Below, piece by piece: positions 13,445 to 59,394 of a stretch of DNA of 64,000 nucleotides (positions are counted from its first letter, which is position 1; each line of letters starts with the position of its first letter). A program made the translations under genes and the position numbers. The stretch lies in the NCBI RefSeq assembly GCF_003386535.1, contig NZ_QTTN01000001.1, positions 352,204 through 416,203 on the forward strand, written 5' to 3'. The notes under the pieces were generated by a model. That model was given only the letters and a program-made list of their open reading frames with translations. It had not been told where the DNA came from and did not search any database. Source of the stretch: Paenibacillus taihuensis (GTDB taxonomy: Bacteria > Bacillota > Bacilli > Paenibacillales > Paenibacillaceae).

Positions 13445-13546
13445 ATGGAGAAAAGCATATTTTGCAAGAGCACTAATAAAATGATAGTACCGCATTTTTT
13501 CATCACTGCTCCCAATTCAAGTGTGGAAAAGGAAGTGTGGCCATGA
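13445..13546 (+). CDS. Candidate 33-residue upstream ORF coupled to the FtsH-like gene
   Basis: ATG 13445 has AGGAG nine bases upstream and opens 33 codons. The TGA stop overlaps the ATG of the next gene (ATGA at 13543-13546), the classic arrangement for translational coupling. The peptide (MEKSIFCKSTNK...) matches no family I know and has no obvious signal or membrane segment. It may be a regulatory leader or a small protein. The good site and precise overlap are the only support. Confidence 0.45.
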   Translation: MEKSIFCKSTNKMIVPHFFITAPNSSVEKEVWP

Positions 13547-15342
13547 GGAGTTATCAATGGGTAAAGTGGCGTAAATTTCTCCTCTGGCTGATTGCCCTCA
13601 TCATCTTAGCCGTCTTCTTAATTAATGGAGGGCCGACGGTCTGGAACATTACGCTTACGATTCTTAGTTTATTGTTTCAGCTCTTGTTTGCCGTGTTGTT
13701 CATCATTATTCAGTTCGTGGCGCTGTTCTGGTTTCTCGCGCGAGGGCGAACGTATTGGATATTGCCTGGCGAAACCGGCTCGACATGGGAAGATTACCGT
13801 GGGAATCCGGAAATTGTCGAGAATGCGAAGCGAATCGTCCTGCTGCTTAAAGGAGTGCGGGAGTTCAAGCAAATGGGAGGCGAGGTCATCCGCGGTTTCC
13901 TGCTGTGCGGACCGCCCGGTACCGGTAAATCCTACCTCGCGCAAGTCATAGCGAATGAAGCGAAGGTTCCTTTCGCTTATGCTTCGGCGCCAAGCTTTCA
14001 GAACATGTTCTTTGGCGTCGGAAACCTTAAAGTCATGGGCATATATAAGAAGGCAAGGAAGCTCGCTAGAATGTATGGCGCTTGCATCATCTTCATCGAC
14101 GAAATTGATGCGATAGGAATGAAGCGTCAAGGTGGCGGCGGCATGGCACTTGGCGGCATGATGGGTATGGGTGGCGGTTCAGGCCTTCTTAACGAACTGC
14201 TCCTGCAGATGGACCCGCCGAACTTGGACAATTCAAAGTTTAAGAAATTGCTAAGGCAGCTTGGCCTTCGCCGCAAGAGAGCGGAGCGTGAAGCGGTGCT
14301 TACCATCGCGGCAACGAACCTGCCGGATGTACTTGATCCGGCGCTGCTGCGCCCTGGCCGGTTCGACCGTCAGCTATGGGTCGATACGCCGGATTATGAT
14401 GGCCGCGTCGACGTCTTCCACTATTACCTCAATAAAGTGAAGCGCGGCGAATCTCTCACCGCAGAGAAAGCAGCGCTCGATACAATCGGCTACAGCCCTG
14501 CACAGATTAAGCATATCGTCAATGAAGCAGTTGTCATTGCCCATCAACGCGGCGCGCAGGAAGCCGAATATCAGGATTTCCGCGTAGCGATGGAAACGTA
14601 CGAGTGGGGGCTGAAACAGCCGCTCCGTTCGATGCGCGACGATGAGAAACGGAATGTGGCGTATCACGAAGCGGGCCACGCCGTTGCCCAATATTTGCTG
14701 AAGCCGCATGATCGCGTCTGGAAGGTAACGATCATTCGCCGCGGCAACGCGCTCGGTCTTGCTGCGACGAAACCGACGCACGAGCGGTATAATCGCAGCG
14801 ACAGCGAAATTCTCGCCAGCATCCAAGTTTGCCTCGCGGCGAGAGCAGTCGAGGAAGAGTTCCTAGGCAAGAAGCTGAATGGCGTCACCTCCGACCTGCA
14901 GCAGGCGACCAATATGGCAGGCGCCTTCCTTGGCGCGGTCGGCATGGGCGATGAGCTGTTCAGCTGGCTCGCGATCGGCTCGCATGCAGACTCGCTGCGC
15001 GCACTGCGGCCGAAGATCAACGAGCTGCTGAAGGAACAGATGCTGCAGGTGAAGAAGCTTATCCTCGCGCATTCCGAGTTCGTACATGCGATTGCGGAGG
15101 AACTGTTGAACCAAGGTGATTTGACAGGCGAGGAGATAGAGCAGATCTATCTGGGTCTCTATGGGCAAATTCGTCCGGAGCCGCCGGTTGTGAGGACGAT
15201 GCTATTCGTAGGCGATGCGAAGAAGCCTGAAGAAGAAATTGTTGAGGAAGAGCCGCCGATTAAGGAACCGTCTGAGGATGGGGAGCAGGGCGAGCAAGGC
15301 GAGGAAGAGAAGAAACCAGAGGACGATACGAAGGAATCTTGA
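13543..15342 (+). CDS. FtsH-like membrane AAA+ zinc metalloprotease (M41), no extracytoplasmic domain
   Basis: 599 residues. Two hydrophobic segments (about 11-28 and 36-66) are separated by only a short turn, whereas FtsH normally has a roughly 70-residue external domain between them. Then come Walker A GPPGTGKS (123-130), Walker B IIFIDEID (182-189), second region of homology AATNLPD with the arginine-finger stretch LLRPGRFDRQ, and the M41 zinc site HEAGH (375-379) with Asp451 as likely third ligand. A Gly/Met-rich insert (197-214) and an acidic Glu/Pro tail (from about 560) are unusual. It probably degrades membrane or cytosolic proteins as a ring at the membrane. ATG 13543 is preferred over GTG 13537 by site spacing. 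Confidence 0.9.
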   Translation: MRSYQWVKWRKFLLWLIALIILAVFLINGGPTVWNITLTILSLLFQLLFAVLFIIIQFVALFWFLARGRTYWILPGETGSTWEDYRGNPEIVENAKRIVLLLKGVREFKQMGGEVIRGFLLCGPPGTGKSYLAQVIANEAKVPFAYASAPSFQNMFFGVGNLKVMGIYKKARKLARMYGACIIFIDEIDAIGMKRQGGGGMALGGMMGMGGGSGLLNELLLQMDPPNLDNSKFKKLLRQLGLRRKRAEREAVLTIAATNLPDVLDPALLRPGRFDRQLWVDTPDYDGRVDVFHYYLNKVKRGESLTAEKAALDTIGYSPAQIKHIVNEAVVIAHQRGAQEAEYQDFRVAMETYEWGLKQPLRSMRDDEKRNVAYHEAGHAVAQYLLKPHDRVWKVTIIRRGNALGLAATKPTHERYNRSDSEILASIQVCLAARAVEEEFLGKKLNGVTSDLQQATNMAGAFLGAVGMGDELFSWLAIGSHADSLRALRPKINELLKEQMLQVKKLILAHSEFVHAIAEELLNQGDLTGEEIEQIYLGLYGQIRPEPPVVRTMLFVGDAKKPEEEIVEEEPPIKEPSEDGEQGEQGEEEKKPEDDTKES

Positions 15343-15370: not shown

Positions 15371-15392
15371 AAGGCTGCCTGATGGCAGCCTT
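15371..15392 (+). terminator. Hairpin after FtsH-like gene
   Basis: Perfect 9-bp stem AAGGCTGCC / GGCAGCCTT, loop TGAT, followed only by TTGGG. It looks like a weak or decayed terminator. Its 3' half (TGCCTGATGGCAGCCTT) recurs at 15727-15743. Confidence 0.6.
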
Positions 15393-15399
15393 GGGCTTT

Positions 15400-15441
15400 A
15401 AAGAACCCCATGTCTGTTACGAAGACATGGGGTTCTTTTTG
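15400..15441 (+). terminator. Strong intrinsic terminator
   Basis: Perfect 16-bp stem AAAGAACCCCATGTCT and its complement around GTTACGA, then TTTTT. Confidence 0.95.
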
Positions 15442-15547: not shown

Positions 15548-15684
15548 TGAGAGTCGGAAAATCCGACTCTCACGCTCGAAAGGCGTTGATATCACACCTG
15601 AGAGTCGTAAAATCCGTTTCTCAGCTGCGCTTTGGCAGTATTCGCCTATCTCTTGGCGTCGAGAGTCGTAAAATCCGTCTCTCA
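15548..15684. repeat. Intergenic palindrome array 1 (three units)
   Basis: Three 25-base palindromic units start at 15548, 15599 and 15660 (periods 51 and 61). They share GAGAGTCG..AAAATCCG..TCTCA. Unit 1 is a perfect 10-bp hairpin (TGAGAGTCGG / CCGACTCTCA, loop AAAAT). Units 2 and 3 are close copies with imperfect arms. The spacers after units 2 and 3 are also alike (GCAGTATTCGCCTAT versus GCGGTATTCGCTTTAT). Together with the terminators this is all that lies in the gene-free stretch 15343-15750. Confidence 0.85.
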
Positions 15685-15722: not shown

Positions 15723-15746
15723 GAGGTGCCTGATGGCAGCCTTTTG
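15723..15746 (+). terminator. Terminator-like hairpin downstream of array 1
   Basis: GAGGTGCC / GGCAGCC with one bulge, loop TGAT, then TTTT. It shares 17 identical bases with the hairpin at 15371-15392. Confidence 0.45.
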
Positions 15747-15750
15747 TCGA

Positions 15751-16047
15751 TCAGCCGTTATAGTGTTTGTCTTTCAGATTGTTCTCTGCAAGTTTCCTTA
15801 GTTGGATGAGCTCTTCTCTTATTGACAAAGACTCATCCTCTAATTCGCTGATCAGTCTCAGTAATATGAAACCAATCGATGAAACGATAGTCCCGAGAAG
15901 GGGAATGACGTATACTTTTAGCGCAATCATATTATCTGGTGCATTGAATCCGTGGGGCGACAAGAATTGCCCAAACCAATAGAGGATAAGCAGGATTCCT
16001 GCGGTAATCAAGCCATACACGAGCTTCCTTGTGGTGTTGTAAAACAT
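15751..16047 (-). CDS. Small two-helix membrane protein of unknown function
   Basis: 98 residues. Two hydrophobic segments (about 10-28 and 43-64) are followed by a charged, probably coiled-coil tail (ISELEDESLSIREELIQLRKL). The ATG at 16047 has GGGAGG nine bases upstream, which supports real coding. I do not recognise the family. No gene lies close on the same strand except the methyltransferase upstream (start 16793, stop 16131), 83 bases away. Confidence 0.6.
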   Translation of the reverse strand: MFYNTTRKLVYGLITAGILLILYWFGQFLSPHGFNAPDNMIALKVYVIPLLGTIVSSIGFILLRLISELEDESLSIREELIQLRKLAENNLKDKHYNG

Positions 16048-16130: not shown

Positions 16131-16793
16131 CTACCGCTTCCGCAGCAATGCTCGGAAACAGTAGATGCCGCCCCAATATTCCGTATGGAGCGCATTGCGA
16201 GGCATCGCGGTGTCGATCGGTCCATAAAATTCAAGCCCGGCTCGGCGGACAATCGACTGGAAGTAACCGAGGTTGACTGCCGGATAGTCGAGCGTCACGA
16301 CGATTAAGCCATCGTCTTGCAAAGTTCGCTCAAACTCCTTCAGTGCTAACAGTGCATCTGCTGGCGTCAAATGCTCCAGAACAGAGATACAGAAGATTTT
16401 GTCGAAGAGTCGATTCTCGTACGGGAGCGCTGTTATGCTCGCTTGGTTGAAGGTGATGCGTCCTTCTTCATATGTGGAAGCGACAGTTTCTGCAGCTGCT
16501 TCGCCAATGTCCAGCGTGACATCCCGCAGTATGCTCGGTATAGAAGTGATGCGAGGATCCATGTCACAGGCATATGTCTTGCGAGCTCGGCTCGCCAGGT
16601 AGAATTTGAACGGATGCGAAATGCCGCATGCCGCATCGAGCACCGTATCGGTCGATGCCACAAATTGCGAGCACCATGCGTATTCATAGGGTCTGCTCCA
16701 CCATTCTAATGGCAAGCTGTAGACAAATTGCCTTGAAGCAGGATCATCCGAACGTACGAATCGGGACACGGTTTGTTCCATCGGTAGCGGCAT
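16131..16793 (-). CDS. Class I SAM-dependent methyltransferase
   Basis: About 220 residues from ATG 16793 (AAGGAG eleven bases upstream); an in-frame ATG at 16814 has no site. Motif I is the variant VLDAACGISHP, followed by acidic loop CDMDPR, then the FDKIFCISVLEHL and LQDDGLIVVTLDYP strands typical of Methyltransf_11. It methylates an unknown small molecule or lipid in the cytoplasm. Note GISHP where most members have GxGxG, a looser SAM loop. Confidence 0.8.
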   Translation of the reverse strand: MPLPMEQTVSRFVRSDDPASRQFVYSLPLEWWSRPYEYAWCSQFVASTDTVLDAACGISHPFKFYLASRARKTYACDMDPRITSIPSILRDVTLDIGEAAAETVASTYEEGRITFNQASITALPYENRLFDKIFCISVLEHLTPADALLALKEFERTLQDDGLIVVTLDYPAVNLGYFQSIVRRAGLEFYGPIDTAMPRNALHTEYWGGIYCFRALLRKR

Positions 16794-16978
16794 CGTCTGT
16801 TTTGCTCCTTCCATAGCTTTGGAGATGAGTATAGGCTTCGATTCTATTTCAGTCTATGAATCACGGTCTCGGAATATATCATAACTATCATATACAGTTC
16901 GAAAGTCTTTCGTTCCGGGCAAGAGGTTATGCTATGATAGCGAAAGATTGTCAGTTTCGATAGGAGGCATGGGCGAAA

Positions 16979-17988: not shown

Positions 17989-18125
17989 TGAGAGCACATA
18001 TACGTTCTCTCAAAGGCACAGTAACCTGAAATGGCGGCATTCATGTAGTCTGAGAGAACACATACGCTCTCTTAAGAACAAGAAACGCGCGAAAAAGGTA
18101 TCGAGAGAACCTATGCGCTCTCTTC
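17989..18125. repeat. Intergenic palindrome array 2 (three units)
   Basis: Three 24-base units start at 17989, 18051 and 18102 (periods 62 and 51), so total length matches array 1 with the two periods reversed. Each has GAGAG...CTCTC ends around an A(C/T)AYRCG-like core: GAGAGCACATATACG, GAGAGAACACATACG, GAGAGAACCTATGCG. Read on the minus strand, the unit starting at 18051 resembles array 1 in its spacer too (AATGCCGCCATTTC against TTGGCAGTATTCGCC). It occupies most of the gene-free stretch 17852-18273. Confidence 0.8.
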
Positions 18126-45545: not shown

Positions 45546-46712
45546 CTATGAAGGCGCAGCCTCGCCAATCGCGGACGCGGCGAGCATCTGAAGAACCGAG
45601 CTATCCATCGGCGGGTTATGCAAGCCGGCGCGGACGTCGCGGTAATAGCGCTCCAGCGGATTCGCGCGTGACAGGCTGGTGCCGCCGACGATGCGCATCG
45701 CCAGGTCGACGACGCGGATGGAGTTGTTCGTGACTGAATATTTGGCCAGACCAAGTTCCGGCCTCATCGCAGTCCGTTCCGACGGTTCCTTGTCCCAACT
45801 GTCTGCCGCCGCATACAACAGCGTGCGGGCTGTACGAAGCTCGATCTCCATCTCTCCGATCATTTGCTGTACAGCAGGGAGGGAGGCTATCGGCTTATCC
45901 AAGGAATTAGGTTTATACGAGCGGGCGAATGCCAGCGCATAATCGCGCGCAGCCAGGGCGATGCCCATATAGCAAGCCGGAATATGCAGCAGCCACCCGC
46001 CGCCGTCATCGGTGCCTTTACCAGTCAGCCGGCTGTCCGCGCTGGCGAAAGCGCCGTCGAGCACCACGTCATGGCTGCCCGTTGCGCGCATTCCGATCGT
46101 GTCCCATGTCTCTATGATCGATACTCGATCCGACCGATGGACGAGAAAATCGGCCGTACAGTCTTCATCCGGGATGTAGGCGGAGACGACGAAACGGTTA
46201 AGAATCGGCGACAGCGTGCTGAACGTCTTCCGTCCCGTGATCCGCCAGCCTCCATCCGCGGCAACGGCGGTCGTCTCGGGACGGCCGCCGCGACTCGGAC
46301 TGCCGGAGGACGCTTCGCTGGCGAAGGTGTTGATCATCGTGCCGTCTTTCACGACGGAGCGGCAAAGGGCTTCGAACGTTTCCGCCGGCCACTTCCCGGT
46401 GGTGCGCAAATGCATGATTTGGCCGAGATGCCAGCCGACGGCAAGCGCGGTTGAGCCGTCCCCGTAAGCGAGCCGTTCCTGCAGAAGGACGAACTCATAC
46501 AGCGTGATTTCGTCGCCGCCGTAAGCACGCGGAACGGTCAGCTTGAGATATCCGTTCTCCCGCAGGTCAGCGAAGTTGTCGAACGGAAACGAGCCCTCGC
46601 GGTCATGCCGGGGAGCACGCTCCGAGAATCGGGCTGCCAATCGCTCGACGAGCTCGACTCGGCATCGTTCCTCATCGCCCCGAATAGGGCTGTCTATGAA
46701 TCGTTTCATCAT
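45546..46712 (-). CDS. Acyl-CoA-dehydrogenase-like flavoprotein
   Basis: 388 residues. LKLTVPRAYGGDEITLYEF, an FASEASSGSPSRGG region where classic enzymes have flavin-contact TEP/GSD motifs, GWRITGRKTFST, and IGMRATGSHDVVLDG are clear family markers; MRIVGGTSL is the C-terminal segment. The usual catalytic Glu region is not evident, so it may belong to the FMN-dependent monooxygenase branch (SfnB/DszC-like). It follows the aldo/keto reductase by 16 bases on the same strand. ATG after AGGAG. Confidence 0.85.
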   Translation of the reverse strand: MMKRFIDSPIRGDEERCRVELVERLAARFSERAPRHDREGSFPFDNFADLRENGYLKLTVPRAYGGDEITLYEFVLLQERLAYGDGSTALAVGWHLGQIMHLRTTGKWPAETFEALCRSVVKDGTMINTFASEASSGSPSRGGRPETTAVAADGGWRITGRKTFSTLSPILNRFVVSAYIPDEDCTADFLVHRSDRVSIIETWDTIGMRATGSHDVVLDGAFASADSRLTGKGTDDGGGWLLHIPACYMGIALAARDYALAFARSYKPNSLDKPIASLPAVQQMIGEMEIELRTARTLLYAAADSWDKEPSERTAMRPELGLAKYSVTNNSIRVVDLAMRIVGGTSLSRANPLERYYRDVRAGLHNPPMDSSVLQMLAASAIGEAAPS

Positions 46713-59188: not shown

Positions 59189-59310
59189 CCAGCTATAGTT
59201 GACGGGGGAAAAAGCTATGTTCCGATTCGATTCATTGCACAACCACTTGGAACGGAATAGATGAAAAAATCCATTTATTTTGGGCTTTAAAGAGGGTTTA
59301 CACAAAGAAA

Positions 59311-59394
59311 TGACCGAAATAACTGGATATTCCAGTTATTTCGGTCAAAATGCTGCAATCGTACTTGAATAACTGGAGATATCCAGTTATTCAA
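59311..59394. repeat. Intergenic palindrome array 3 (two units)
   Basis: Unit 1 (59311-59347) is a perfect 17-bp inverted repeat TGACCGAAATAACTGGA with loop TAT; unit 2 (59365-59394) is a perfect 13-bp inverted repeat TTGAATAACTGGA with loop GATA. They share the core AATAACTGGA/TCCAGTTATT, and centres lie about 51 bases apart, the spacing of arrays 1 and 2. The spacer has AATGCTGCAATC, akin to the array spacers elsewhere. Neither unit has a T-run, so they are not ordinary terminators. The gap 59189-59543 holds this and the MarR promoter. Confidence 0.85.

What the first reader, a model, noticed from the sequence alone, without database searches (positions are those of the whole stretch)
15548..15684. 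Palindrome array family, locus 1: three hairpins at 51- and 61-base spacing
Three copies of TGAGAGTCG..AAAATCCG..TCTCA lie between genes; the first is a perfect hairpin. The sequence between palindromes is also repeated (GC-GTATTCGC motif). Two other loci in this window have the same layout with different palindromes. The arms are alike within a locus and differ between loci, so copies may be homogenised locally while the architecture is kept. This fits no known REP, BIME, CRISPR or IS type that I can name. Possible roles are a structured RNA, a protein-binding array, or a miniature element.
Basis: partly seen in the sequence, partly recalled or inferred. Interest (0 to 1): 0.8.

Follow-up and report, generated by a model that had tools for sequence, protein, structure and literature searches.

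The report
Helically spaced palindrome arrays in Paenibacillus
Some bacteria of the Paenibacillus group carry, between genes, rows of short DNA palindromes set almost always about 51 or 62 letters apart, and this layout is kept while the letters change, which likely lets a still unknown protein grip or wrap the DNA from one side.

Summary
The three palindromes at 15549-15683 (spacing 51, 61) belong to a genome-wide family (158 strand matches in the window's genome, reversed-pattern control 1). In six related genomes 262 of 283 adjacent palindrome pairs under 80 bp lie at 50-52 or 61-63 bp. A second family with other outer arms (TGGAWWWWTCCA) has the same spacing in several genera: in an open 37-67 bp search of seven genomes all 115 pairs lie at 50-52 or 61-62. 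Spacers diverge in sequence, but short A/T tracts stay near 20.5, 31 (and 41.5) bp from the palindrome centre, in one 10.2-10.3 bp register. Related species carry arrays in the same gene gap with replaced palindromes. Arrays are enriched between convergent genes. Thirteen of 14 carriers lack Y1/REP transposases. Best reading: a BIME-like element acting as duplex DNA, likely a docking or wrapping site for an architectural protein or gyrase. No binding protein was identified. It is not a classic REP/BIME, CRISPR or Rfam RNA.

The parts
15549..15571 (.). palindrome 1 (23 bp, GAGAG..CTCTC), perfect
15572..15599 (.). short spacer, 28 bp, with W tracts at 15579-15581 and 15589-15592
   Evidence: tract positions as
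15600..15622 (.). palindrome 2, 51 bp from the first
15623..15660 (.). long spacer, 38 bp (family mode 39)
15661..15683 (.). palindrome 3, 61 bp from the second
15400..15438 (+). predicted intrinsic terminator between the upstream gene and the array
   Evidence: I3; -23.1 kcal/mol
15376..15392 (.). 17-bp direct repeat, copy 1 (hairpin sequence)
   Evidence: D3
15727..15743 (.). 17-bp direct repeat, copy 2; such flanking repeats are not general
13537..15342 (+). upstream flanking gene, AAA / peptidase M41 (FtsH-like); part of it was used for the orthologous-site comparison
15751..16047 (-). nearest ORF on the other side, 98 aa, pointing towards the array (convergent); not annotated
16131..16814 (-). 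next longer ORF, methyltransferase domain
17990..18124 (.). second array of the window: palindromes at 17990-18011, 18052-18073, 18103-18124 (spacing 62, 51)
59256..59394 (.). third array: dyads centred at 59267, 59329 and 59379.5 (62, 50.5), AACTGGA core of the TGGA family

Best explanation
These are dispersed intergenic arrays of palindromes spaced mostly 51 or 62 bp apart, with A/T tracts between them in one helical register, and they likely work as duplex DNA that an architectural protein or DNA gyrase docks on or wraps. Shown: palindrome centres and the A/T tracts of the spacers fall in phase at 10.2-10.3 bp; spacing and tract positions are kept while arms and spacers are replaced, also at orthologous sites; arrays are enriched between convergent genes and rare between divergent ones. 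Inferred: selection acts on DNA geometry and bendability; a dimeric or multi-site protein reads the dyads; the site helps absorb supercoiling or organise DNA where transcription units meet, as BIME-2 may do with gyrase in E. coli. Arrays probably grow and homogenise by tandem duplication of a 113-bp dimer, and in one lineage they were also copied to new sites as part of a larger dispersed repeat.
For: Spacing: 163 adjacent pairs at 50-52 and 99 at 61-63 among 283 adjacent pairs under 80 bp in six genomes (39 of the 60 stretches are from G000). TGGA family: 115 forward matches in an open 37-67 bp search of seven genomes; 106 are at 51 and the nine others, read off the listing, at 50, 52, 61 or 62; reversed-pattern control 0. 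Tracts: W at about 20.5 and 31 bp in the short spacer and 20.5, 31, 41.5 in the long one, seen again in each of G000, OV219, CF384 and P. lignilyticus and in the mean of eight genomes of the TGGA family. Phase relative to the palindrome centre is -4 degrees (short) and 4 degrees (long) at 10.2 bp; the fraction of arrays within 90 degrees of the mean is 1.00 of 120 and 0.97 of 107; shuffled amplitude is 0.001 and 0.004 against 0.157 and 0.081. Tracts use A and T about equally and TpA is rare (59, against 183 ApT). Same site with replaced palindromes in G018 and G001 and 13 both-flank orthologous array pairs among sampled arrays. Context: 49 convergent, 51 codirectional, 4 divergent gaps with arrays against 33, 192, 101 without (odds ratio 7.9, p 6e-15). 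Arm mismatches show no clear G-U bias (GT+TG 129, AC+CA 112), a weak test because arrays were not oriented by transcription. A predicted terminator lies between gene stop and array in 68 of 148 facing gene ends against 108 of 407 control ends. E. coli gyrase sites show phased GC content and are overrepresented in BIME-2 (PMC6379681, passages).
Against: No binding protein was found or tested. Most genomes searched lack the arrays: the GAGAG pattern matches 9 of 394 family genomes and the TGGA pattern 20 of 392 order genomes, so they are dispensable. Predicted static curvature by a wedge model is only slightly above dinucleotide shuffles (26.7-32.4 against 25.8-28.5 degrees per 40 bp in four species). 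The 10.2-10.3 bp register differs from the 10.75 bp of the published gyrase motif. In G045 many copies are one copied repeat, so their spacing is not independent. Orientation EM finds slight sequence structure in short spacers beyond independent columns (13.74 against 12.73, sd 0.44), so spacers are not purely W/S coded. The innermost arm pairs do not covary. The convergent-gene bias could come from insertion preference or from selection against arrays near promoters.
Confidence: 0.55

Rival explanations
1. Selfish miniature elements spread by an unknown transposase; the fixed spacing is the geometry of the transposition complex and the arrays do nothing for the host.
For: Dispersed copies in each carrier; in G045 15 of 20 fetched loci share a repeat of about 370-600 bp around the array; divergent gaps are avoided, as inserted elements would.
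Against: Arrays persist at orthologous sites between species whose flanking gene DNA is 81-84% identical to the window's (G018, G001; further pairs); spacing is kept while sequence is replaced; Y1 transposase is missing in 13 of 14 carriers; flanking direct repeats are not clearly more common than in controls (5 of 114 against 10 of 342).
Confidence: 0.25
2. Structured RNA: the hairpins act in 3' untranslated regions of converging transcripts, as stabilisers, processing sites or terminators.
For: Strong predicted RNA folding of the window array (z -5.5); inner arm positions 6-8 pair more than when 3' arms are dealt among arrays (0.75, 0.62, 0.88 against maxima 0.73, 0.51, 0.64); location at gene 3' ends.
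Against: No clear G-U bias in mismatches (weak test); helical A/T phasing of the linkers has no RNA reason; predicted terminators often lie before the array (68 of 148); a T run lies within 10 nt of only 107 of 1506 palindrome strands; innermost arm pairs do not covary; no Rfam match in the window.
Confidence: 0.12
3. Strong DNA gyrase sites: each palindrome is a G-segment and the phased spacers wrap the GyrA C-terminal domains, a functional copy of E. coli BIME-2.
For: Convergent-gene location, palindrome arrays, and phased A/T and G/C flanks of an extent comparable to the published gyrase motif.
Against: Period 10.2-10.3 instead of 10.75 bp; the GAGAG outer arms are 94-99% conserved per position (partly enforced by the detector), which gyrase would not need; gyrase is general in bacteria (recalled) while the arrays are patchy.
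Confidence: 0.2

Closest known systems
BIME-1/BIME-2 (arrays of REP/PU palindromes, enterobacteria)
   Same: intergenic, regularly spaced palindromes in many copies; BIME-2 bind and are cut by gyrase (PMC6379681 and PMC2817692, passages). That BIMEs use short and long linkers is recalled.
   Different: no GTAG/CGTC tag at one end, Y1/RAYT missing in 13 of 14 carriers, and a 51/62-bp helical spacing shared by families with different outer arms
GTAG and CGTC REP superfamilies (PMC3733652, passages)
   Same: short hairpins in many copies; subfamilies with alternative complementary stem residues
   Different: tags absent; that paper reports spacers of most REP dimers varying from 20 to 100 bp, here mostly 28 or 39 bp
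E. coli DNA gyrase motif / strong gyrase sites (PMC6379681, passages)
   Same: central region flanked by phased A/T-G/C variation read as bendability
   Different: 10.75-bp period there, 10.2-10.3 here; palindrome arms conserved here
CRISPR arrays
   Same: regularly spaced palindromic repeats
   Different: spacers are repeated or drifting, not unique; two alternating spacer lengths; many small arrays per genome

Membership tests
REP/BIME with RAYT (GTAG type) | palindrome tagged by GTAG (or GTGG) at one end | tested here: not met
   flank consensus is GCT-GAGAG..CTCTC-AGC, no GTAG
REP/BIME with RAYT (GTAG type) | Y1 (IS200-type, RAYT) transposase in the genome | tested here: not met
   PF01797 absent in 13 of 14 carriers, G000 among them; present in G109; positive controls ring
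BIME (general plan) | intergenic clusters of palindromes with two linker classes | tested here: met
   28 and 39-bp spacers in 130 arrays (detector links 27-30 and 38-41); 3' and convergent bias
BIME-2 | bound and cut by DNA gyrase | not testable with these tools
   only indirect: phased A/T tracts
CRISPR | unique spacers between identical repeats | tested here: not met
   spacers repeat within arrays and drift between species; cas genes were not searched for
Rfam structured RNA | match to a curated family | tested here: not met
   0 matches at gathering score in the window; other loci not scanned
Gyrase strong site | about 130-bp motif with 10.75-bp periodic GC content | tested here: inconclusive
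   periodic but at 10.2-10.3 bp; the published matrix was not at hand
MITE / IS-derived element | defined ends with target duplication | tested here: inconclusive
   no clear excess of flanking direct repeats for GAGAG arrays, 5 of 114 against 10 of 342; a dispersed repeat around TGGA arrays in G045

The most novel reading that the evidence does not exclude
A geometry-coded chromosomal site: what is inherited and selected is the set of helical positions (palindromes every 5 or 6 turns, A/T tracts on the same face), while the bases are free to turn over, so that families with different outer arms in several genera of the order share one layout read by one DNA-wrapping machine. It would be a nucleosome-positioning-like code in bacterial chromosomes.
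Probability: 0.35. Interest if true: 0.88.

Novelty: new variant of a known kind. Interest (0 to 1): 0.74.

Why it matters
Whether bacterial palindromic repeats are selfish or functional is a long-standing question. Here the spacing is kept to about one base and the spacer composition is phased with the helix while sequence turns over, also at orthologous sites, which makes a functional, geometry-based reading directly testable. If a protein is found, carriers would offer a natural set of dozens of arrays per genome for studying DNA wrapping or supercoil control between converging genes.

Tried and rejected
RAYT/REPIN: no Y1 transposase in 13 of 14 carriers. Rfam: no match in the window. Plasmid and phage records: no match to the window array. 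Terminator or target-site duplication as a general feature: suggested by the window's 17-bp direct repeat and by G045 copies, not borne out for GAGAG arrays. A strict palindrome scan gave few pairs. The sequence-blind triplet scan was too noisy at a low threshold; at the highest threshold the (51,62) and (62,51) combinations rank top in G000 but with only 3 hits each, and no excess appears in 100 kb each of five non-carrier genomes or in 400 kb of P. alginolyticus. Static curvature by a wedge model: only slightly above shuffles (parameters recalled, not from a call). The Armatimonadetes and Bacillus EB106 hits are G-rich or 25-bp tandem repeats, not arrays of this kind. Recurrent flanking gene: the ORFs recurring beside arrays were not annotated; loci with TGGA arrays show no shared neighbour by eye; no systematic gene-presence test was made. 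Literature: seven keyword searches listed no description of these arrays; subscription papers are mostly not held.

Full report
The finding itself. The three palindromes are present where stated, and the two other loci claimed for the window are real: 17990-18124 with spacing 62 and 51, and 59256-59394 with spacing 62 and 50.5. A scan of the window with no sequence given puts 51, 61, 50.5, 62 and 61.5 as the five best-scoring distances between similar dyads over 35-80 bp. The nearest neighbours are an FtsH-like gene on the left and a 98-aa minus-strand ORF on the right, so the gap is convergent.

Extent. The window's genome (G000, 6.79 Mb, 85 contigs) holds 70 forward and 88 reverse matches to the family pattern with up to 2 mismatches, against 1 for the reversed pattern. 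Of 394 genomes of its family, searched with a pattern of one palindrome, a 28-bp spacer and the next left arm, nine match: five carry 76-125 forward matches each (G000, G001, G003, G014, G018), G005 and G008 carry 3 and 2, and two others have one stray match; reversed-pattern matches occur in three genomes (G018 1, G107 5, G156 1). Contig lengths identify G018 as Paenibacillus sp. OV219, G014 as Paenibacillus sp. CF384 and G003 as P. lignilyticus DLE-14. In a tree of the flanking FtsH-like gene, available in 14 of 22 genus genomes, these seven carriers are one side of a branch with support 99/99 (midpoint root, for drawing only).

Geometry. In 64 arrays, 328 palindromes give 138 spacings of 51 and 90 of 62 (a detector that links only 50-52 and 61-63). 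Without that restriction, 262 of 283 adjacent pairs under 80 bp lie at 50-52 (163) or 61-63 (99), in stretches of six genomes. By species the spacer modes are 28 and 39 bp (that detector links 27-30 and 38-41). Four palindromes is the commonest array size, 26 of 130 arrays.

A second family with the same geometry. In the G000 stretches held, all 15 listed pairs of TGGA[AT]4-5TCCA palindromes closer than 160 bp have spacing 50-51, 61-62 or 113. The 51-bp pattern occurs in 8 of 197 family genomes and in 20 of 392 order genomes (families f1 and f6), six genera over the two calls, with no reversed-pattern match in either. With the gap left open (37-67 bp spacing) in seven of these genomes, 115 forward matches are found; 106 are at 51 and the nine others at 50, 52, 61 or 62 (whose listing is cut). 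In OV219 a flank holds a palindrome that mixes the TGGA core with a CTCTC half, and members of both families share a GGA-A/T-TCC core, so they may be distant forms of one element and 'unrelated' would be too strong.

Helical phasing. Aligned on palindrome centres and weighted one per array, the spacers show A/T tracts near 20.5 and 31 bp in the short spacer and 20.5, 31 and 41.5 in the long one. G000, OV219, CF384 and P. lignilyticus each show this, and so does the TGGA family averaged over eight genomes, most with only 1-3 loci. At a period of 10.2 bp the tract phase relative to the palindrome centre is -4 degrees (short) and 4 degrees (long); the fraction of arrays within 90 degrees of the mean is 1.00 of 120 and 0.97 of 107. 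Periods from about 9.5 to 11 give similar amplitude, so the period rests mainly on phase and on 51/5 and 62/6. A and T are about equally used; letting arrays choose an orientation does not reduce the tracts to one base. TpA steps are rare in the tracts. Static curvature by a wedge model is only slightly raised, so bendability rather than fixed curvature is the better description.

Evolution. The intergenic site next to the FtsH-like gene carries an array in G018 and G001 too, with different inner palindromes. Of the eleven other genomes with a clear ortholog, ten have no array anywhere in the locus held and G005 has one of four palindromes that is not in the 750 bases after the gene match. Among sampled arrays of six genomes, 13 pairs have matching genes on both sides (two share one partner array, and one G000 array is in two pairs); they involve 24 arrays, whose 163 spacers include 77 of 28 bp and 58 of 39 bp. 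Units within an array are often near-identical while orthologous arrays differ. Inner arm positions 6-8 pair beyond dealt controls, positions 9-10 do not. In G045, 15 of 20 fetched loci share a dispersed repeat around the array, so copying to new sites happens there.

Context. With ORF-based gene calls, gaps holding arrays are 49 convergent, 51 codirectional and 4 divergent, other gaps of at least 100 bp 33, 192 and 101. A predicted terminator separates gene stop and array in 68 of 148 facing gene ends, against 108 of 407 control ends (antisense rate 41 of 407; four species; windows are not exactly length-matched).

Mechanism. Spacing kept to about one base, A/T tracts in register with the palindromes and turnover of the bases point to selection on duplex geometry, hence (inference) to a protein that grips or wraps one face. 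The closest precedent is BIME-2, overrepresented in gyrase cleavage sites in E. coli, and the gyrase motif with phased GC content (PMC6379681, passages; PMC12393610, passages; PMC2817692, passages). The period differs (10.2-10.3 against 10.75), which to my knowledge (recalled, not from a call) would suit a left-handed rather than gyrase's right-handed wrap, so gyrase is one candidate among architectural proteins. No protein was identified here.

Noticed in passing
L336-L350 (genome G045): A dispersed repeat of about 370-600 bp carries a TGGA palindrome array between two hairpin ends; some copies sit in what looks like a native terminator hairpin present on both sides.
   Followed up: partly
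L322 (genome G392): A tandem run of nine TGGA palindromes at strict 51-bp spacing with near-identical 39-bp spacers, open in one reading frame (51 is a multiple of 3).
   Followed up: no
G000 C5:97443-97573 and L079-L083 joined (G003) near 46650: Another repeat family, TAACGGTTGTCA, with copies 50 and 70 bp apart or dyads 112 bp apart.
   Followed up: no
L169 (P. alginolyticus DSM 5050): A single locus with GAGAG palindromes at 28/38-bp spacers, outside the main carrier group.
   Followed up: partly
window 15376-15392 and 15727-15743: A 17-bp hairpin sequence occurs on both sides of the array; such flanking repeats are not general.
   Followed up: yes
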